A DNA stretch of 36,756 nt from Acetofilamentum sp. (GTDB lineage Bacteria; Bacteroidota; Bacteroidia; Bacteroidales; DYOH01), in assembly GCA_020720625.1 (NCBI GenBank), contig DYOH01000033.1, positions 1-36,756 on the forward strand, given 5' to 3'. Numbering within the stretch: position 1 is the first letter of the stretch; every line of letters begins with the position of its first letter. Below the pieces are notes generated by a model, which saw nothing but the letters and a program-made list of their open reading frames with translations, was not told where the DNA came from and ran no database searches. Made by a program: the position numbers and the translations under genes. This document shows, one piece after another, positions 3,289 to 29,513 of this stretch.

Positions 3289-3305
3289 AAATTTACCACA
3301 AAATT

Positions 3306-3337
3306 AAAAGGGATAAACACTTAAGTTTATCCCTTTT
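3306..3337. terminator. Bidirectional hairpin terminator
   Basis: A perfect 13-bp inverted repeat, AAAAGGGATAAAC (3306-3318) and GTTTATCCCTTTT (3325-3337), with a 6-base loop. It sits between the receptor gene (+) and the barrel gene (-), which converge here. The A/T-rich outer stem gives a U-rich 3' end in both directions, so it can serve both transcripts. Confidence 0.8.
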
Positions 3338-3366
3338 AAAATCAAAACAGACAATTTACTATCACA

Positions 3367-4038
3367 CTATTTTCTTTTGCGCCATTTTCTGCGGTCTGCC
3401 AACCTTGCTTTTTCTTCGTCGGTCATAAAAGTAAATCTAACGCCAAGATGCGCAACAGCAGAAACTTCTTTGTGCAAAGAGCTTTTTCCATAAGATTTGT
3501 ATTCGAGTTCCGGCCTAACATAAAAGCTAAATTTGCGAATTCCAATTTCGGCAATAATACCTACATTTCCAAACATGGCGGTGGTGTCTACCTGAGTGCT
3601 ATCCTTTGCATTTCCGAAAGCACCCAATTTGGTACCAAAACCAATATTAATAGGGCTGTACTTAAAAAGCATCCAATCGTACATTAAATAGCCTTTGGTT
3701 ACATTAGAAGTTTGATTAAGGACTAAACGACCAAGATTTTCGGGCGTTAAAAAAAATTCTTTACCCACACCAAATCCAAAACGATGGTGTCTAACTTTAA
3801 ATAAGAAATCGAAATGAGTAGGAATAAGCGCACCTGAGTTTACAATATTTGTACTAATTACAGCACCCGCACCCAATCCGGTACCAAAAATAAAAGCATC
3901 CAAACCACTAGGTTCAGTTTGCGCATTTTGCTCTCCGTTTTTTGGATCTTCGGTTTTTTGTTCCGGATTTATGTTAATTTGCGCCATTAACCATACTCCT
4001 TGCAACATAATCAACAATAAAACAACACTTTTTCTCAT
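3367..4038 (-). CDS. Putative outer-membrane beta-barrel protein
   Basis: A 223-residue protein with a clear signal peptide (MRKSVVLLLIMLQGVWLMAQ). A polar Gln/Glu-rich linker (about 21-45) follows, then alternating hydrophobic/aromatic strands with Gly-rich turns (about 48-205) and a very basic tail ending RRKWRKRK. The strand pattern is typical of small porin-like or OmpA-type barrels, but I do not recognise the family. It lies 140 bases downstream of gyrB on the same strand, separated by the gyrB terminator, so it is probably transcribed alone. Localisation to the outer membrane is inferred from the signal peptide and strand pattern; the function is unknown. Confidence 0.65.
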   Translation of the reverse strand: MRKSVVLLLIMLQGVWLMAQININPEQKTEDPKNGEQNAQTEPSGLDAFIFGTGLGAGAVISTNIVNSGALIPTHFDFLFKVRHHRFGFGVGKEFFLTPENLGRLVLNQTSNVTKGYLMYDWMLFKYSPINIGFGTKLGAFGNAKDSTQVDTTAMFGNVGIIAEIGIRKFSFYVRPELEYKSYGKSSLHKEVSAVAHLGVRFTFMTDEEKARLADRRKWRKRK

Positions 4039-12867: not shown

Positions 12868-13071
12868 TTAATTATGACCTAAACCTTTATTCAAAATATT
12901 TTTTATTAATTTATCGTCTGGCACAATTTCTTTACTTCTTAGCGCATCAAAAATTTCATTTAATTTTTTTTCGTCGGCCAGAATCTCATTTAATAAAAAA
13001 ACAGAATTATAATCAATTAAGCTAGAGTCCAAATTCTGAATTTGTACAATAAAAGGGTAAAGTTTTTTCAT
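12868..13071 (-). CDS. Small hypothetical protein
   Basis: A 67-residue protein starting MKKLYPFIVQIQNLDSS, with several short amphipathic segments and a Lys/Asp/Glu-rich C-terminal half. It has no Cys, membrane segment or recognised motif. The ATG at 13071 is preferred over an in-frame TTG at 13077. It sits alone between rlmD and dapB and points the opposite way to both. The sequence shows normal amino-acid variety, which favours a real gene, but there is no homology that I can recall, and a chance open frame cannot be excluded. Confidence 0.4.
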   Translation of the reverse strand: MKKLYPFIVQIQNLDSSLIDYNSVFLLNEILADEKKLNEIFDALRSKEIVPDDKLIKNILNKGLGHN

Positions 13072-13077
13072 CGGCAA

Positions 13078-13402
13078 AATATCTTTAGCGTTTTTTTATA
13101 TAACTATAACGCAATAGTTAAGGTTGTATTATAAAAAAAAATAGTTTTTTAGATTTATTAAGGATTTCAAATAATTTACGTAGAATAGGTAAGCGTATCC
13201 TCAATTCCGGCGTAATTTATTAGACTTACAAGACAGTCAAAAAAAAGCCTAAGAATATAGTTATCAACACAATATGCTATAGCATCAAACACAATATGAA
13301 GCAGGTTTCAATTTTTTAAGTTTTTTTCGACTGCATATAACTAAAGAAATTATAATTTAGTGCCAAAATTATCATCAAAAGGAAAAAACAAGCATCTAAA
13401 GA
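13078..13402. other. Intergenic region upstream of dapB
   Basis: These 325 AT-rich bases carry no gene that I can support. Short dyads are present: AACTAT/ATAGTT near 13100-13120, and the palindrome ATGCTATAGCAT near 13272. TAATTTAG (13353-13360), 42 bases before the dapB ATG, matches the -7 consensus at all but one position and may be the dapB promoter. Confidence 0.4.
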
Positions 13403-14119
13403 ATGAAAATAGCCCTTATAGGATATGGAAAAATGGGAAAAACCATTGAAAAACTGGCCATAGAAAGAAATCACGAAATAGTAAGTATCATAGACCAAGA
13501 CAATCAGCATGATTTCGATTCAGCAGCATTCTTGGACGCCGATGTTGCCATAGAATTTACAAACCCCGAAACAGCCGTAGCCAATTATTTGCGATGCTTT
13601 GAAAGAGAGATTGCCGTTGTATCGGGCACTACAGGCTGGCTAGCGGAATTACTCAACATAGTTAGCCTGGTAGAACAACAGCAAAAAAGCTTTCTCTACG
13701 CTTCAAATTTTAGCATAGGCGTAAATATCATGTTTTGGCTCAACAAGCAATTGGCCGTTCTGATGAATAAATTGCCGGGTTATGAAGCAAAAATGTTGGA
13801 AATACACCATACCCAAAAAAAGGATGCACCAAGCGGCACCGCAATTACATTGGCAGAAGATATTATACACAAAACAGAAAGATTAAACAAATGGGTACTT
13901 GACGAAAAAAAAGCTGACTATGAATTGCCCATAAAAGCAATCAGGGAAGGTGGTGTTTTTGGCTATCATCAGGTGCAATACGAATCTAACGAAGATACCA
14001 TTCTGCTCTCTCACAATGCCAAAAGTCGCGACGGATTTGCTCTCGGAGCCATTATGGCCGCAGAATTTCTATATGGGAAAAAAGGATTTTTTACAATGGA
14101 CGATGTTTTAAAATTATAA
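13403..14119 (+). CDS. dapB: 4-hydroxy-tetrahydrodipicolinate reductase
   Basis: Catalyses the NAD(P)H-dependent reduction step from hydroxy-tetrahydrodipicolinate to tetrahydrodipicolinate in the lysine/diaminopimelate pathway, supplying both lysine and peptidoglycan precursor. The 238 residues show the nucleotide-binding IALIGYGKMGKTIE at the N-terminus, VVSGTTGW (about 73-80), and the catalytic/substrate-binding block EIHHTQKKDAPSGTA (about 133-147). FGYHQVQYES and the C-terminal block (FALGAIMAAEFL) are also typical. It starts the cluster dapB-lepB-second S26 gene; lepB begins 16 bases after its stop, so they are likely co-transcribed. Confidence 0.96.
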   Translation: MKIALIGYGKMGKTIEKLAIERNHEIVSIIDQDNQHDFDSAAFLDADVAIEFTNPETAVANYLRCFEREIAVVSGTTGWLAELLNIVSLVEQQQKSFLYASNFSIGVNIMFWLNKQLAVLMNKLPGYEAKMLEIHHTQKKDAPSGTAITLAEDIIHKTERLNKWVLDEKKADYELPIKAIREGGVFGYHQVQYESNEDTILLSHNAKSRDGFALGAIMAAEFLYGKKGFFTMDDVLKL

Positions 14120-14135
14120 TAGAAAATTTTTAAAA

Positions 14136-15488
14136 ATGACTAGCAAAATAAATGCATTATTAACCAACAAATGGTTTAAATTCGGAGTAGCATCCTTCTT
14201 CTATTTATTATGGGTAATTTGGCTCGGTAATTATTGGTTTTTAATCGGATTAGCCATCTTATTTGATATCTACGTATCAAAAAAAGTACATTGGGCTTTC
14301 TGGAAGAAAAAAGGAGTGGAACAACAAACCAAAACAGTAGAATGGATAGACGCTATTATTTTTGCAGTAATAGCCGCAAGCTTTATACGCACATTTTTTA
14401 TCGAAGCTTATACAATTCCTACATCATCCATGGAAAAAACTTTGCTTGTAGGCGATTATCTCTTCGTAAGCAAATATAGCTATGGACCGCGCTTACCCAT
14501 GACCCCCATTTCGGTGCCTTTTGCTCATCACACAATGCCTTTTACACAATTCACCCCGTCTTTTTCCAACTGGTTAAGCCAACCCTACAAAAGACTTAAA
14601 GGCCTTTCTAAAATTGAAAGAAACGACGAGGTTGTATTTAACTTTCCGGAAGGCGATACCGTTGTGCTTCAACATCAGGACCAAAGCTATTACGAGCTTG
14701 TTCGGGAACTTGGACGCGAAAGATTATGGTCTAATTTCGACATTGGAATAAGACCTGTAGATAAACGCGAAAATTATATAAAAAGATGCGTTGGTATACC
14801 CGGAGATACAATAGAACTAATTCATGGTCAGTTATTTATAAACAATAAAGCGCAAAAAAAATACAGCGGTATTCAATACAAATACATTATCGAAACCGAT
14901 GGTTCGCGCATTAACGAAAAAATACTACAGGACATGGGTGTAAGCAAAGAAGACATTAACAACTCTCTTATCACACCAAGTACTTATATTTTACCGCTAA
15001 TGGACGAAAATCTTGAAAAAATAAAGAATTTTAAAATTGTAAAAAGTGTAACGCGCTACGAAAGACCGGCCGGACAGCGATCGGAATATATTTTTCCGCA
15101 CAATGCACAATTCAATTGGAACGAGGATAATTTTGGACCTATTTATCTGCCCAAAAAAGGAGATATTATTCAGCTAGATAATAGTAATATCTTAATTTAC
15201 AAAAGATTAATTGAAACCTACGAAGGCAATAAAGTGGAACTCAAAAACAACGAAATTTTTATTAACAGAACAGCCGCCACTAGCTATCAGGTAAAAATGG
15301 ATTATTACTGGATGATGGGCGACAGCCGCCACAATTCGCAAGATGCCCGTTTCTGGGGTTTCGTACCCGAAGACCACATTGTTGGAAAACCAGTATTTAT
15401 TTGGCTTTCGATTGACAAGGACAAATCTTTCCCTGCCAATATTCGCTGGAGCAGGCTTTTCAAAAGAATAAAAGGCCACAATGAGTAA
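14136..15488 (+). CDS. lepB: Signal peptidase I
   Basis: Membrane-bound protease that removes signal peptides from exported proteins. The 450 residues begin with two hydrophobic segments (about 14-47), then a third (about 70-88) leading into the catalytic site IPTSSMEKTLLVGDYLFVSK, where S98 is the nucleophile. The general base is K216 in YIKRCVGIPGDTIEL. The last conserved box is GDSRHNSQDARFWGFVP (about 412-428). It is long because of a large insert between the Lys box and the GDSR box, common in Bacteroidota. It lies 16 bases after dapB and overlaps the next gene by 8 bases. Confidence 0.95.
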   Translation: MTSKINALLTNKWFKFGVASFFYLLWVIWLGNYWFLIGLAILFDIYVSKKVHWAFWKKKGVEQQTKTVEWIDAIIFAVIAASFIRTFFIEAYTIPTSSMEKTLLVGDYLFVSKYSYGPRLPMTPISVPFAHHTMPFTQFTPSFSNWLSQPYKRLKGLSKIERNDEVVFNFPEGDTVVLQHQDQSYYELVRELGRERLWSNFDIGIRPVDKRENYIKRCVGIPGDTIELIHGQLFINNKAQKKYSGIQYKYIIETDGSRINEKILQDMGVSKEDINNSLITPSTYILPLMDENLEKIKNFKIVKSVTRYERPAGQRSEYIFPHNAQFNWNEDNFGPIYLPKKGDIIQLDNSNILIYKRLIETYEGNKVELKNNEIFINRTAATSYQVKMDYYWMMGDSRHNSQDARFWGFVPEDHIVGKPVFIWLSIDKDKSFPANIRWSRLFKRIKGHNE

Positions 15489-16254
15489 ATCGCCCGGATT
15501 AAGATATTGGATAATTATATCGACAGCAAGTTTTCTGCTGTCGATTTTATTTATAGCTTATTTCGGCGAATTTTTCAAGCTAAAACCCTTTCATTTTGAG
15601 AAAGATAACATAAAAAGCCATTGGGTTTTTATTAATAAGTGGAACACAAAATTGCAAAAAGAGCGTTTATACCTTATCAAAAAAAGAAATATAACCTTTG
15701 TTGCCCGATGTATTGCCCTGCCCGGAGATACTTTCCAAATAAAAAACGGAAAATTCTACATCAACAACAAACAGTTTTATCCAAAACACATTCAATACTT
15801 CTACGAATTTATTTCCGAACAAAGCATTAGAGACAGCCTAAACAAATACAATGTTGTTTTTAACGAAACAAATGCCCAAGGATTATTTATCAGTAGTGCT
15901 ATTTTAGCTCCGGGTTATCAAACTTATTTTGCATCTATTAAAGGCGTTTATTCAACAAAAAGACAAAATCGGTCATTTGAAAATGAAAGCAATATCGACT
16001 TTTTTGGTCCGGTAATAATGCCTAAAAAAAACCAAAAAATAAAATTCGATAGCAATTTAATTGATTTTTATGCGCCATTAGAATCGGAAAAAATAATACA
16101 GATTAGTAACACTGAATATGAATTTACCGCAAGGCAAAACTACTATTTTTTTCTGAATGATATTCAGAATGTAGTATTGGATTCGCGCAATTTGGGACCA
16201 ATAAAAGAATCTGATGTTGTAGGATTAATAAAAAAACACTTCGAAATTAACTGA
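15481..16254 (+). CDS. Catalytically degenerate S26 (signal peptidase I-like) paralogue
   Basis: A 257-residue relative of LepB with one N-terminal membrane segment (about 10-28). It keeps structural landmarks: RCIALPGDTFQIKNGKFYI matches the LepB Lys box, FFGPVIMPKKNQKI matches LepB FGPIYLPKKGDII, and DSRNLGPIKESDVVGLI matches the GDSR box. The catalytic residues are lost: aligning HWVFINK with LepB YLFVSK puts H38 where LepB has S98, and A75 where LepB has K216. It is therefore probably not a protease, though it may partner LepB or bind signal peptides (inference). It overlaps lepB by 8 bases and has an intact frame and no internal stops, which argues against a decaying pseudogene. From memory, a second S26 gene after lepB is common in Bacteroidales. 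Confidence 0.8.
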   Translation: MSKSPGLRYWIIISTASFLLSILFIAYFGEFFKLKPFHFEKDNIKSHWVFINKWNTKLQKERLYLIKKRNITFVARCIALPGDTFQIKNGKFYINNKQFYPKHIQYFYEFISEQSIRDSLNKYNVVFNETNAQGLFISSAILAPGYQTYFASIKGVYSTKRQNRSFENESNIDFFGPVIMPKKNQKIKFDSNLIDFYAPLESEKIIQISNTEYEFTARQNYYFFLNDIQNVVLDSRNLGPIKESDVVGLIKKHFEIN

Positions 16255-16603
16255 TACTAAGCACAGTTTTTAACAACTGCGAAATATTGTAAGGCTTATA
16301 AAAGGTTTCGATATTGGTAAAGCTTTTTACCTCGTGCTTTTGAAAAGGAATAGAACTCACAATAATAATGGGAACCCTAGATGCAGTACGTATTTTGTGC
16401 AATAATTCCACTCCAATTAAATCGGGTAGATACAAATCGGTTATAACCAGACCTATCTGACTATTTGCGTTAAGAATAGTCAGTGCTTCTACGGCACTTG
16501 AACAATTAATAATTTTAAATTCTGAAGCACTAAATATTTCAGAATACAAAAATTGCTCAGTTTGAGAAGGTTCTATAATTAATATGATTAGATTTTGACT
16601 CAT
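16247..16603 (-). CDS. Stand-alone response-regulator receiver domain
   Basis: A 118-residue single CheY-like domain with no output domain. The phospho-acceptor is D56 in LVITDLYLPD, the conserved Thr/Ser lies in IIIVSSIPF, and the Lys is K103 in FYKPYN. The acidic pair near the N-terminus is reduced to E11-P12, so Mg2+ binding may be altered. No histidine kinase is encoded nearby. It converges on the degenerate S26 gene and overlaps its 3' end by 8 bases. It is divergent from divIC, with 107 bases between starts. A role as a phosphorelay intermediate or a local adaptor is possible, but no partner is visible. Confidence 0.85.
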   Translation of the reverse strand: MSQNLIILIIEPSQTEQFLYSEIFSASEFKIINCSSAVEALTILNANSQIGLVITDLYLPDLIGVELLHKIRTASRVPIIIVSSIPFQKHEVKSFTNIETFYKPYNISQLLKTVLSIS

Positions 16604-16658
16604 TTAAACCTTAATGATACAAATTTTAGACCGTAATAAAATCGAAGGGGATTAAAAA

Positions 16659-16692
16659 TTGCTTTCTAAGTAACAAAATTAAGCTAATTTTG
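16659..16692 (+). promoter_or_regulatory. Candidate promoter of the DivIC/FtsB gene
   Basis: TAATTTTG (16685-16692) is an exact TAnnTTTG -7 box, with TTG (16659-16661) 23 bases upstream. The ATG at 16711 lies 18 bases after the -7 box. An in-frame TTG at 16690 falls inside the box and is therefore unlikely to be used for translation. Confidence 0.5.
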
Positions 16693-16710
16693 CAAAAACA
16701 AAAAACTATT

Positions 16711-17016
16711 ATGTGGAAACAAATTTTAAATAAGTGGTTTCGTCTGATTATCAAGTATAAATTTTGGGTAAGCCTTGGTTTATTTTTATTTTGGAGTTTT
16801 ATCATCGATAGTAATAATTATTTTACGCGAAAAGAAATGAAAGTCGAAATTCACGAATTAGAATCGCAAAAGGATTATTACGTAAAAAAGATAAGCGAAG
16901 ACTCCGTTAGGCTATATTATTTGAAATCGGACAACGAAGTATTGGAAAAATTTGCACGTGAACAATATCTTATGAAAAAAGCAAACGAAGATTTATTTAT
17001 TATTGTGGAAAAATAA
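16711..17016 (+). CDS. Septum-formation initiator, DivIC/FtsB family
   Basis: A 101-residue bitopic division protein. It has a short basic cytoplasmic N-terminus, one membrane helix (about residues 18-37), a coiled coil (about 43-80) and the family-typical C-terminal block LEKFAREQYLMKKANEDLF. These proteins act with FtsL and FtsQ in activating septal peptidoglycan synthesis. The start is the ATG at 16711, placed 18 bases after a -7 box. It ends one base before the 3' end of the convergent glycosyltransferase gene, with no room for a terminator between them. Confidence 0.88.
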   Translation: MWKQILNKWFRLIIKYKFWVSLGLFLFWSFIIDSNNYFTRKEMKVEIHELESQKDYYVKKISEDSVRLYYLKSDNEVLEKFAREQYLMKKANEDLFIIVEK

Positions 17017-17017
17017 G

Positions 17018-18268
17018 TCAAACTTCTTCTTTATCTAATCCACGATAGAAAACCAATAAATCAAGATTCTCGCAGGCAGTTTTGGGCACTAAAAACAATG
17101 CTGCTTGCTCAACCCTTATCTTTGGCAAAAAATCAGTTGAAAAGTTGCAGTATTTCACCATTTTAAAACCATTAAACCACTGAAAAAACTGCTTTATAAA
17201 TAAGTTTTCGTTGGAAACATTCTGTTTTATTCTGCCAATTTCCAAACAAAAATTATTCTCGTGCAAAAATATTTCTAAAAATCCGGTCAAATTTAGGCTC
17301 GCTAAAAATCCGGAGCAATCGGAAACCGCATAAAAACCAGAAACTTGCTTAAATAGTACTTTCAAAGCGACAAAAATAGCGGGATTATATGTAAGCACAT
17401 CATAATCATTATTTAAACTATGCTCACGAATAAATGCCCCTGTTCCAAAAGGCACTCTGTGCGAAACCCTGGGTGATGGCATAACCGTGGTTTGGGTAAT
17501 ATTACCCAAATCGCCCAAAGCAGTTAATTTGTGTAAAAAATAAAAATCTTCGCCGGCTTTCCTCCTATTCATACCATTTTGTTTTACATAGGCGAATGCT
17601 TTCACCACAAAAGCAGAGCCCAAAGTGTGAAAATAAAACGGAAAACCGGAGTATTTAAGCATTTGAGAATAGTAACGCAAATGCAATTCGTAATTGTACA
17701 TCAATTGGTACTGCGCTAAAGAGAAATCGCTGCCATGCAAAGGATGCTCAAAGTAAATATTGGCAGCCAGGTGCTGCCTATTCTGCTGAAAATGAGAAAA
17801 AATTGCTGTAAAATAGTTTTCATCTACCACAGAATCAGCATCTAAATTAATAATTAATCCATTTGGCTGATTTATCGTATTAAAGCATTCCACGGCTAGA
17901 TCCATACCAATTTTACGTGCATATCCGGCACCGGCAAACTTTTTCGCGAGCAGTGGCGGCATTAGGGCATAAATGCTAAGATTTTCGGCCTTATGTTGCA
18001 AATTAAACGCCAAAATCTGAGTATAGCTTATTCGATTCGTATCCAAAGTGCTTTCGCTTGCATCCTCGGGGGCATTAATAACCACAAACACATACAAAAT
18101 CTTCTTGGTTTGCAAAGCAGCTTTAAAAAGCGAATTTAAAGTCGGAAAAATATCCGGCTCTTCGTAACTCGGTATAACAATGCAAGCATCCAAATTTTGG
18201 AGCGGCAGATTTAAAGCAAAATTATGCTTATAAGCATATTTCAGTAAATAATGATTGGCAAAAGCCAT
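17018..18268 (-). CDS. Family 2-like glycosyltransferase
   Basis: A protein of about 416 residues with a GT-A fold. The nucleotide-sugar site opens with ACIVIPSYEEPDIFPTLNSL (about 28-47), and the metal-binding DxD equivalent is INLDADSVVDENY (about 142-154). AGYARKIGMDLAVECF before it, and GEDFYFLHKL (about 235-244) after it, fit the acceptor side of GT2 enzymes. No clear membrane segments are seen, so it is probably cytoplasmic or peripheral. The acceptor is unknown, and no polysaccharide cluster is nearby. It follows the two-TM gene almost immediately; a GTG at 18274 is one base after that stop and is an alternative start, but I prefer the ATG at 18268. Confidence 0.75.
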   Translation of the reverse strand: MAFANHYLLKYAYKHNFALNLPLQNLDACIVIPSYEEPDIFPTLNSLFKAALQTKKILYVFVVINAPEDASESTLDTNRISYTQILAFNLQHKAENLSIYALMPPLLAKKFAGAGYARKIGMDLAVECFNTINQPNGLIINLDADSVVDENYFTAIFSHFQQNRQHLAANIYFEHPLHGSDFSLAQYQLMYNYELHLRYYSQMLKYSGFPFYFHTLGSAFVVKAFAYVKQNGMNRRKAGEDFYFLHKLTALGDLGNITQTTVMPSPRVSHRVPFGTGAFIREHSLNNDYDVLTYNPAIFVALKVLFKQVSGFYAVSDCSGFLASLNLTGFLEIFLHENNFCLEIGRIKQNVSNENLFIKQFFQWFNGFKMVKYCNFSTDFLPKIRVEQAALFLVPKTACENLDLLVFYRGLDKEEV

Positions 18269-18275
18269 TAGCACT

Positions 18276-18785
18276 TTATTCTTTAAGCTGATTTATTTGT
18301 TTTTCGATAGCCGGATCAAGGCCAATTCCGGTAAACTGATTAATAAAATCGTCCCATTTGTCTTCGGCGTTTTGCTCTCTCAATCGACGAATAAAATCAC
18401 CTTTATGCTCTTTTAGAAGAGAATAAATGGTTTTAAGCCACAATGCTTTATTGTTTTTAAGCTTTTCTACTTCCTCCGCAGTGTATTGGGCATGAATTTT
18501 TTCGTCGAGCGGTTTTACAATACAATCGCAAATAACTTTGTCGATGCCTTTTTCGCCACAATACATCTCATTTAAATCCATTAATTTGAAATCGGAAGCC
18601 GAAACCTGAAAATTATTCATATCCATTTTGCCTGTACCCACAAGAAAGCCAACCACGATAGCCCCAAAGACAAAAGTAGTTCCCAAAATTTTTAAGCCTG
18701 TTTTAAAGACTAATCTAAAAATCAGGAGGCCGACAACAAAAATGCCGGCAACAACGGCCATAGTATTCATATCCATGTTCATCAT
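18276..18785 (-). CDS. Two-TM protein of unknown function
   Basis: A 169-residue protein with two hydrophobic segments near the N-terminus (about 9-26 and 31-50). A soluble domain follows with a three-Cys stretch, MYCGEKGIDKVICDCIV (about 74-90), and an amphipathic, charged C-terminal half. The Cys cluster may bind a metal or form disulfides, depending on topology; neither can be read from the sequence. I do not recognise a family. The gene precedes the glycosyltransferase by a single-base gap, so the two are likely co-transcribed. Its ATG (MMNMDMN) is Met-rich and the precise start is uncertain by a few residues. Confidence 0.6.
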   Translation of the reverse strand: MMNMDMNTMAVVAGIFVVGLLIFRLVFKTGLKILGTTFVFGAIVVGFLVGTGKMDMNNFQVSASDFKLMDLNEMYCGEKGIDKVICDCIVKPLDEKIHAQYTAEEVEKLKNNKALWLKTIYSLLKEHKGDFIRRLREQNAEDKWDDFINQFTGIGLDPAIEKQINQLKE

Positions 18786-28015: not shown

Positions 28016-29513
28016 ACTTCCAAATACCGGATTTTTAAAAACCGCCATACTTTTGGCGGTTTTGTTTTTTTCCTGTCAAAATAAAGGCGAAAATGCAAAT
28101 CTTTCGGAGAATATAACGAAAGATACCATAGCCCCCTATTCCGAAAAGATAGAATTTATTAATCCTACATTTTTGGGAAATTTCCACAGGAATTATTACG
28201 GCGACTCCATTCCTGACAACCTGGAGCTAAACTGGAAACTGGTGCTTGGAAGCGGAAAAACCAAAGTAGGAAACGATACCCTACATTGGTCGGGAGCCGG
28301 CTGGACAGGCCAACCACTGATGATAAAGGAAGACAGTGTTTTATATTTATTTCAGGGCGCTTACGACCACCATTTAAGAAAAATTGAAGCATCAAGCGGA
28401 AAAGTAATTTGGAAATATCAGTTCGAAGATGTTTTGAAAGGCACCGGAACACTCTGGAAAAACGAAAAAGAAAAAGACTCCATAGAACTACGATATCTTA
28501 TTATGCAAGGTTCGCGATTTGGTTTTAACCGAAGTATGGGCTCGGCAGTTGTACCAAGCTATAGGGCGGTTTCGCTAGTAAGCGGCGAAAACTTATGGCA
28601 ATTAAATGTATGGCGCACCAAAAGCTACAGCCGCGATGTAGATGCATCGGCAGCCTGGATTGGCGACACCGCCTATATTGGCCTTGAAAACGGCAGATTT
28701 ATTAGTTTTCTGCCTGATGCAAGAAAAGCCAAAAAAAAGGAAGGCATTATTCAACCCAAAATTTTAGATACGGCCGAACTTTATAATCAGCAGGATTTTA
28801 TTAGCCATAAAGGAAATTTGGTAACCGAAGCATCTCCTGCAATTTTAAACAATAGGGTTTACCTTGCTTCTGGCTCTGGACACGTTTACGGCTACAACTT
28901 AAAAACAAAAAAAATTGACTGGACTTTCGATATCGGAAGCGATATCGATGGCAGCCCTGTGGTTACAAACGACAATTGCCTGCTTATCAATGTTGAAAAA
29001 GAATATGTGAAAGGACTTGGAGGGGTAATAAAACTTAATCCATCGAAAAAAGATAGTTTGGCCGTAGAATGGTACTTCCCGGTGCCCGACCGAAATTTTG
29101 CCACATGGAAAGGTGGTATTATTGGCACAAGCGCTATCTCGGACTACTACCAACCCGACTCGGCACAACAACTGGCCGCTTTCTCAACCATTAGCGGAAA
29201 ACTCTATGTAATTATGCATAACAAATTAGATTCCGGACAAAAAGTGAAAGATTTTAACCTACAACATCAGTATAATAAACCAAAAGAAATATTCAGCTAT
29301 AATATTGGACCATCAATTTCCACACCACTTATAATTCCACCCAGAATAATCGCCGCAGGATATAATGGTATATATATTTTTGAATACGACAAAAATTATC
29401 TATTTAAATTAATTGCCAAACGCGAAGGTGGATTTGAAGCTACACCTTTTGTTTACAAAGGAAAAATTTATATTGCATCGCGCGATGGCCATCTTTATTG
29501 TTTGGGAAAATAA
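27996..29513 (+). CDS. PQQ-like beta-propeller lipoprotein
   Basis: About 505 residues starting at the ATG at 27996. The N-terminus is a lipoprotein signal, hydrophobic TAILLAVLFFSC with Cys at the predicted lipidation site. The rest has repeated beta-propeller blades in the style of PQQ/BamB-type WD proteins: GYNLKTKKIDWTFDIGSDID, then SPVVTNDNCLLINV, and a final SRDGHLYCLGK blade. No PQQ-binding catalytic residues are evident. Likely tethered to the inner or outer membrane facing the periplasm. It overlaps the M23 gene by 20 bases, so the two are probably translated together, and an envelope assembly role is an inference. Confidence 0.75.
   Translation: MKTLWIKLPNTGFLKTAILLAVLFFSCQNKGENANLSENITKDTIAPYSEKIEFINPTFLGNFHRNYYGDSIPDNLELNWKLVLGSGKTKVGNDTLHWSGAGWTGQPLMIKEDSVLYLFQGAYDHHLRKIEASSGKVIWKYQFEDVLKGTGTLWKNEKEKDSIELRYLIMQGSRFGFNRSMGSAVVPSYRAVSLVSGENLWQLNVWRTKSYSRDVDASAAWIGDTAYIGLENGRFISFLPDARKAKKKEGIIQPKILDTAELYNQQDFISHKGNLVTEASPAILNNRVYLASGSGHVYGYNLKTKKIDWTFDIGSDIDGSPVVTNDNCLLINVEKEYVKGLGGVIKLNPSKKDSLAVEWYFPVPDRNFATWKGGIIGTSAISDYYQPDSAQQLAAFSTISGKLYVIMHNKLDSGQKVKDFNLQHQYNKPKEIFSYNIGPSISTPLIIPPRIIAAGYNGIYIFEYDKNYLFKLIAKREGGFEATPFVYKGKIYIASRDGHLYCLGK

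What the first reader, a model, noticed from the sequence alone, without database searches (positions are those of the whole stretch)
15481..16254. A signal peptidase-like protein beside lepB that has lost Ser and Lys
The paralogue keeps the fold-defining boxes but has H38 and A75 where LepB has S98 and K216. The frame is intact and overlaps lepB by 8 bases, so it is likely expressed with it. An inactive partner of signal peptidase would be a plausible regulator or substrate-presenting subunit, and I know of no described function.
Basis: partly seen in the sequence, partly recalled or inferred. Interest (0 to 1): 0.6.

Follow-up and report, generated by a model that had tools for sequence, protein, structure and literature searches.

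The report
Catalytically dead signal peptidase twin
Next to its working signal peptidase gene this bacterium carries an intact gene for a look-alike that has lost every catalytic residue; such dead twins turn up beside lepB in about twenty related bacterial families, so they are probably a used non-enzymatic part of the protein-export machinery rather than junk.

Summary
Window 15481-16254 encodes a 257-residue S26 (signal peptidase I) paralogue overlapping lepB (14136-15488) by 8 nt. The Ser nucleophile is His38 and the Lys base is Ala75. Two further active-site positions are also lost: Ser278 (E. coli numbering) is Val and Gly272 is Asn. The AlphaFold model is confident (pLDDT 89.5); its best structural match is Streptococcus pyogenes SipA, itself a dead signal peptidase. 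It and lepB are the only S26 genes in this genome.

It is not unique. I found S26 second genes with a broken dyad in 21 of about 120 sampled families of the order, beside lepB in 17 of them, usually as dapB-lepB-lepB2. Frames are intact, dN/dS is 0.11-0.21 where measurable, structural residues are kept, and losses were repeated. Decay is therefore unlikely for the class, though the window copy is very divergent. An accessory, non-catalytic role is the best reading, but no partner or function is shown. SipA and S. aureus SpsA are precedents.

Unexpected: a terminator-like hairpin lies 38 nt inside the gene. Such hairpins exceed synonymous-codon expectation in 10 of 51 dead genes, against 0 of 153 later segments of those genes.

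The parts
13403..14119 (+). dapB (dihydrodipicolinate reductase), first gene of the conserved dapB-lepB-lepB2 layout
   Evidence: DapB_C and DapB_N Pfam hits; same order in many relatives
14136..15488 (+). lepB, active-type signal peptidase I, 450 aa, S98 (codon 14427-14429) and K216 (14781-14783), box E GDSRHNSQDAR
   Evidence: Pfam PF10502 146 bits, TIGR02227 129 bits, alignment
15481..16254 (+). lepB2: catalytically dead S26 paralogue, 257 aa, one N-terminal TM helix (residues 7-28), S26 fold
15481..15488 (+). 8-nt overlap of lepB stop with lepB2 start
15592..15594 (+). codon CAT, His38 at the position of the catalytic Ser (E. coli Ser90)
15703..15705 (+). codon GCC, Ala75 at the position of the catalytic Lys (E. 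coli Lys145)
16156..16188 (+). box E remnant NDIQNVVLDSR (residues 226-236); Gly272 -> Asn226, Ser278 -> Val232, Asp273, Asp280 and Arg282 equivalents kept
15519..15545 (+). perfect 10-bp hairpin, 7-nt loop, inside the lepB2 frame (38 nt after the ATG begins, 31 nt after the lepB stop); terminator-like
   Evidence: p = 0.002 against 6000 synonymous-codon shuffles
15546..15555 (+). T-rich tail TTTATTTATA following the hairpin

Best explanation
LepB2 is a non-catalytic, membrane-anchored protein with the signal peptidase I fold, made from the lepB operon. SHOWN by computation: S26 descent, predicted fold, loss of the dyad and of two neighbouring active-site residues, lepB linkage, and recurrence in many families under purifying selection. 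[quoted passage not shown] In the window's lineage several residues lining the signal-peptide pocket are also lost, so a scaffold or LepB-binding role is favoured there over signal-peptide binding. The hairpin inside its first codons would let part of the dapB-lepB transcripts end before lepB2, keeping it below LepB in amount (inferred).
For: Dyad and Ser278/Gly272 mostly lost while R146, D273, R275, D280 and R282 equivalents are kept in 48-50 of 51 dead genes. 53 S26 genes lacking the full dyad collected, nearly all complete frames, many directly downstream of an intact lepB and often overlapping it (28 dead pairs, gaps from -68 to 266 nt). dN/dS 0.11-0.21 for second genes, against 0.04-0.09 for lepB in pairs where dS was usable. 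AlphaFold pLDDT 89.5, pTM 0.84; SipA is the top VIA match, Z 16.1, rmsd 1.9 over 122 residues, then SpsB and E. coli LepB. Gly272 -> Asp in 31 of 51 dead genes, a derived conserved change. Precedent of a dead SPase with an essential non-catalytic role: SipA (PMC4049620). Hairpin enrichment.
Against: No interaction, expression or phenotype data. Adjacency does not prove partnership. The window copy is very divergent (end branch 2.46, at most 27% identity to any relative), and the copy of the one same-family genome (G002) has also lost D280 and R282, so constraint in this family is weak. In one genus two of three genomes have no recognisable S26 gene after lepB, so it is dispensable in places. 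No close relative of the window copy exists in the data, so selection on it could not be measured directly.
Confidence: 0.5

Rival explanations
1. SipA-like client adaptor: LepB2 keeps a peptide groove and presents or shields particular exported proteins (for example type IX secretion cargo, which this genome encodes) instead of acting on LepB.
For: Best structural match is SipA, which keeps a peptide-binding cleft and is essential for pilus assembly. M91 (45 of 51) and hydrophobic 84/86/144 positions are mostly kept across dead relatives. The genome has 39 T9SS sorting-tail hits.
Against: In the window copy P87, M91, L95, G98 and D99 are all replaced. SipA itself showed no measurable peptide binding. 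T9SS tails are as common in genomes where no lepB2 was found (G012, G226).
Confidence: 0.25
2. A decaying duplicate of signal peptidase on its way to loss, most of all in the window's own family.
For: Very long branches for the window and G002 copies, degraded box E in G002 and G129, absence in G012 and G226 of the same genus as G129.
Against: Intact 257-codon frame with a confident fold after more than two changes per site; purifying selection in relatives; parallel retention in about 20 families; no internal stops seen other than those past a shortened C-terminus (checked for G086).
Confidence: 0.17
3. Still a peptidase, using other residues, or with the Ser/Lys supplied by LepB in a heterodimer.
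For: Some second genes in the same clade keep Ser and Lys, and a number keep Lys only.
Against: Replacements are diverse (K, R, N, G, A, L, H, E, T, Q, D) and no substitute nucleophile or base is conserved. In SipA the residues at the dead site play no part in activity (PMC4049620).
Confidence: 0.05

Closest known systems
Streptococcus pyogenes SipA (PDB 4n31; PMC4049620)
   Same: SPase I fold with both dyad residues replaced (Asp48, Gly85); best structural match here (Z 16.1)
   Different: Gram-positive, in a sortase pilus cluster, needed for pilus polymerisation; LepB2 lies in a dapB-lepB operon of a diderm with no pilus genes beside it
Staphylococcus aureus SpsA (PMC12445088)
   Same: Inactive SPase I homologue lacking two catalytic residues, in a genome with an essential active SpsB; neighbouring genes (adjacency from memory)
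   Different: Dispensable, no function assigned; a different lineage; not compared residue by residue here
E. coli LepB / signal peptidase I (PDB 1t7d, 1b12)
   Same: Homologous catalytic domain, membrane anchor, retained box D and E structural residues
   Different: S90, K145, S278 and G272 equivalents all replaced; 257 aa with one anchor helix
Active second LepB of other Bacteroidota (Marinilabiliales, Flavobacteriales, Mucilaginibacter)
   Same: Same operon position after dapB-lepB in many cases
   Different: Keep Ser, Lys and Ser278

Membership tests
Peptidase family S26 (signal peptidase I), by descent | Score above the curated cut-off of PF10502 / TIGR02227 | tested here: met
   50.3 bits against 22.9; 57.0 against 47
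Peptidase family S26 (signal peptidase I), by descent | S26 fold | tested here: met
   AlphaFold pLDDT 89.5; SipA, SpsB and E. coli SPase at Z 12-16
Active signal peptidase I | Ser nucleophile and Lys general base | tested here: not met
   H38 and A75
Active signal peptidase I | Ser278 and Gly272 next to the base | tested here: not met
   Val232 and Asn226
Active signal peptidase I | N-terminal membrane anchor | tested here: met
   Predicted helix 7-28, hydrophobic; one helix only
SipA family (pilus assembly pseudo-peptidase) | SPase fold with dyad replaced | tested here: met
SipA family (pilus assembly pseudo-peptidase) | Encoded in a sortase/pilin cluster | tested here: not met
   Flanked by dapB-lepB and a response regulator
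SipA family (pilus assembly pseudo-peptidase) | Conserved peptide-binding cleft | tested here: inconclusive
   Mostly kept in relatives, largely replaced in the window copy, by sequence only
Intrinsic terminator (hairpin at 15519-15545) | G+C-containing stem followed by a T-rich tract | tested here: met
   10 bp, 5 G-C pairs, 7 T in 10
Intrinsic terminator (hairpin at 15519-15545) | Stops transcription | not testable with these tools
   needs RNA 3'-end data; terminators in the first 100 bp of a frame do work in E. coli (PMC4824070)

The most novel reading that the evidence does not exclude
Many Bacteroidales have a two-subunit signal peptidase: LepB plus a dead LepB-fold subunit that controls or addresses it, with the ratio set in some lineages by a transcription terminator buried in the first codons of the dead subunit's gene.
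Probability: 0.2. Interest if true: 0.75.

Novelty: new variant of a known kind. Interest (0 to 1): 0.52.

Why it matters
Signal peptidase I is essential and a drug target, and is treated as a single-subunit enzyme in bacteria. A recurring dead homologue encoded beside it would suggest a regulated or heteromeric form in Bacteroidota, a phylum with unusual export rules (the Q-rule, type IX secretion). It is directly testable by tagging and deletion. The hairpin inside the downstream gene would be a compact way to set subunit ratio in an overlapping gene pair.

Tried and rejected
Viral contigs: only three weak S26 hits, 178-aa proteins. G001 (same genus): contig C470 ends inside lepB, so its lepB2 cannot be seen. 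YN00 dN/dS failed for most pairs and NG86 dS is near or beyond saturation in several, so values are rough. A single origin of the dead state is not what the tree shows (6 changes, at least 3 forced by starred branches), but the quick tree cannot place the long window branch; the AU test was not run. The hairpin as a by-product of TM codons was tested with synonymous shuffles and does not explain it. The hairpin as a universal lepB2 feature is rejected: most dead lineages lack it, including the added f63 genomes. Rfam: nothing at 13000-18500. One Pfam call failed on a wrong coordinate and was repeated.

Full report
WHAT IS THERE. The frame at 15481-16254 (+) is open, 257 aa, and starts within the last 8 nt of lepB. 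It is homologous to signal peptidase I by profile and by direct comparison with the neighbouring LepB (27% over 229 columns, E 1e-14). LepB S98 and K216 align with H38 and A75. The rest of the active site is also gone: E. coli Ser278 is Val232 and Gly272 is Asn226. The genome holds only these two S26 genes. LepB itself has all four residues.

FOLD. AlphaFold with 40 family sequences gives pLDDT 89.5 and pTM 0.84, with one helix (7-28) followed by a beta-rich domain. The VIA second look ranks SipA 4n31 first (Z 16.1, rmsd 1.9 over 122 residues), then SpsB (14.5) and E. coli SPase (12-13). Foldseek ranks SpsB and E. coli SPase first with weak whole-chain TM-scores; a sub-domain at about residues 106-168 matches unrelated ferredoxin-like folds instead, which may explain this. 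The profile of the family finds the same solved structures.

HOW WIDESPREAD. Searching 60, then 295, then 393 genomes of the same order, plus named genome contigs, and reading the loci, shows a common layout dapB-lepB-lepB2. I collected 53 S26 genes lacking the full Ser-Lys pair, two of them cut by a contig end. By my count over the family codes they come from 21 of about 120 sampled families; in 17 of these a lepB lies directly beside the gene on the same contig. In one family (G024, G137, G233) lepB is flanked by a dead copy on each side. The replacements are diverse: Ser becomes K, R, N, G, A, L, H, E, T, Q or D; Lys becomes S most often (23 of 51) but stays Lys in 20. By contrast the R146, D273, R275, D280 and R282 equivalents are kept in 48-50 of 51, and Gly272 has become Asp in 31 of 51. 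So the site that does chemistry is free to vary while the frame of the fold is held. Second genes that keep Ser and Lys occur in Marinilabiliales, Flavobacteriales and others. On a quick maximum-likelihood tree, with the catalytic columns left out, the dead state needs 6 changes, at least 3 forced by starred branches, so loss was repeated.

SELECTION. In pairs of related genomes the second gene has dN/dS 0.11-0.21 and lepB 0.04-0.09 where dS was usable; several pairs are near saturation. Frames are intact; the stops reported inside some matches lie past a shortened C-terminus, as checked for G086. The window copy itself has no close relative: the same-genus genome G001 breaks off inside lepB, and the same-family G002 copy is only 18% identical and has lost further box E residues. 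Its end branch is 2.46 changes per site. It is therefore fast-evolving but still a complete, confidently folding frame. Two of three genomes of one genus (g12) have no recognisable S26 gene after lepB while the third has a degraded one, so the gene can be lost.

AN UNEXPECTED FEATURE. A perfect 10-bp hairpin with a T-rich tail lies at 15519-15555, inside the frame, 38 nt into the gene and 31 nt after the lepB stop. It exceeds 6000 synonymous-codon shuffles at p = 0.002; the G002 copy has a different hairpin at +58 with p = 0.0003. Across dead genes 10 of 51 reach p <= 0.01 in the first 180 nt. In the next three 180-nt segments of the same genes it is 0 of 153, in lepB 1 of 74, in other genes with an N-terminal TM 1 of 46. 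The dead-versus-control difference is significant also when collapsed to lineages by my own count (about 7 of 36 against 6 of 241, Fisher p about 3e-4). Limits: the T-tail score was designed after seeing the first cases. In a follow-up set only 1 of 6 further lepB2 genes of this type had it, and that one belongs to the already known G090 lineage (which keeps Ser and Lys but has lost Ser278), while 3 of about 38 active genes from other orders also passed. In 675 kb of this genome, 5 of 139 tightly spaced downstream genes and 1 of 255 distant ones pass; the two strongest are both in this window. So such hairpins are a rare general arrangement that is over-represented in dead lepB2 genes. In E. 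coli a terminator 30 bp into a frame kept most of its efficiency, whereas one a few bases after a stop codon is suppressed by the translating ribosome (PMC4824070), so partial termination is plausible here. None of this is shown experimentally.

INTERPRETATION. Its inference of a partner or regulator remains inference. It overlooked precedents: SipA (Asp and Gly in place of the dyad, essential for pilus assembly, no measurable peptide binding) and S. aureus SpsA (inactive, dispensable). I found no paper in the searched library describing the Bacteroidota class. The best reading is a non-catalytic accessory of the lepB operon. Because P87, M91, L95, G98 and D99 are all replaced in the window copy, I favour LepB binding or scaffolding over signal-peptide binding in this lineage.

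NOVELTY. Dead signal peptidase homologues are known, so the kind is known. A recurrent, lepB-linked class in diderm Bacteroidota, with repeated loss, a gained Asp at Gly272 and terminator-like hairpins inside some of the genes, is a new variant as far as this search shows.

Noticed in passing
window 28038-28063: A second strong hairpin with T tract (AAAACCGCCATACTTTTGGCGGTTTT-GTTTTTTTCC) lies 42 nt inside a frame that starts by overlap with the upstream M23 peptidase gene (ATG 27996, PQQ beta-propeller lipoprotein). Same arrangement as in lepB2.
   Followed up: partly
L044, L124, L138, L185: lepB flanked by dead S26 copies on both sides (upstream copy G/A-S-S, downstream H/R/K-S-P); the upstream copies form a separate clade nearer lepB.
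   Followed up: partly
L116, L117, L267: Second genes with Ser and Lys intact but Ser278 lost and box E changed to DDN, nested among dead genes and carrying the intragenic hairpin: possible intermediates.
   Followed up: partly
window 16247-16603 (-): Single-domain response regulator whose 3' end overlaps the lepB2 3' end by 8 nt, convergent.
   Followed up: no
window 3304-3339: 15-bp inverted repeat between the convergent ends of a TonB-dependent receptor gene and the gene at 3367-4038; likely bidirectional terminator.
   Followed up: no
L272-L301: In other orders of the class the short LepB type most like lepB2 (about 350-420 aa) keeps Ser and Lys, so lepB2 may descend from a short active form.
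   Followed up: no
L213:5326-6561: Saccharicrinis aurantiacus second S26 protein keeps the Ser but has Ser for the Lys.
   Followed up: no
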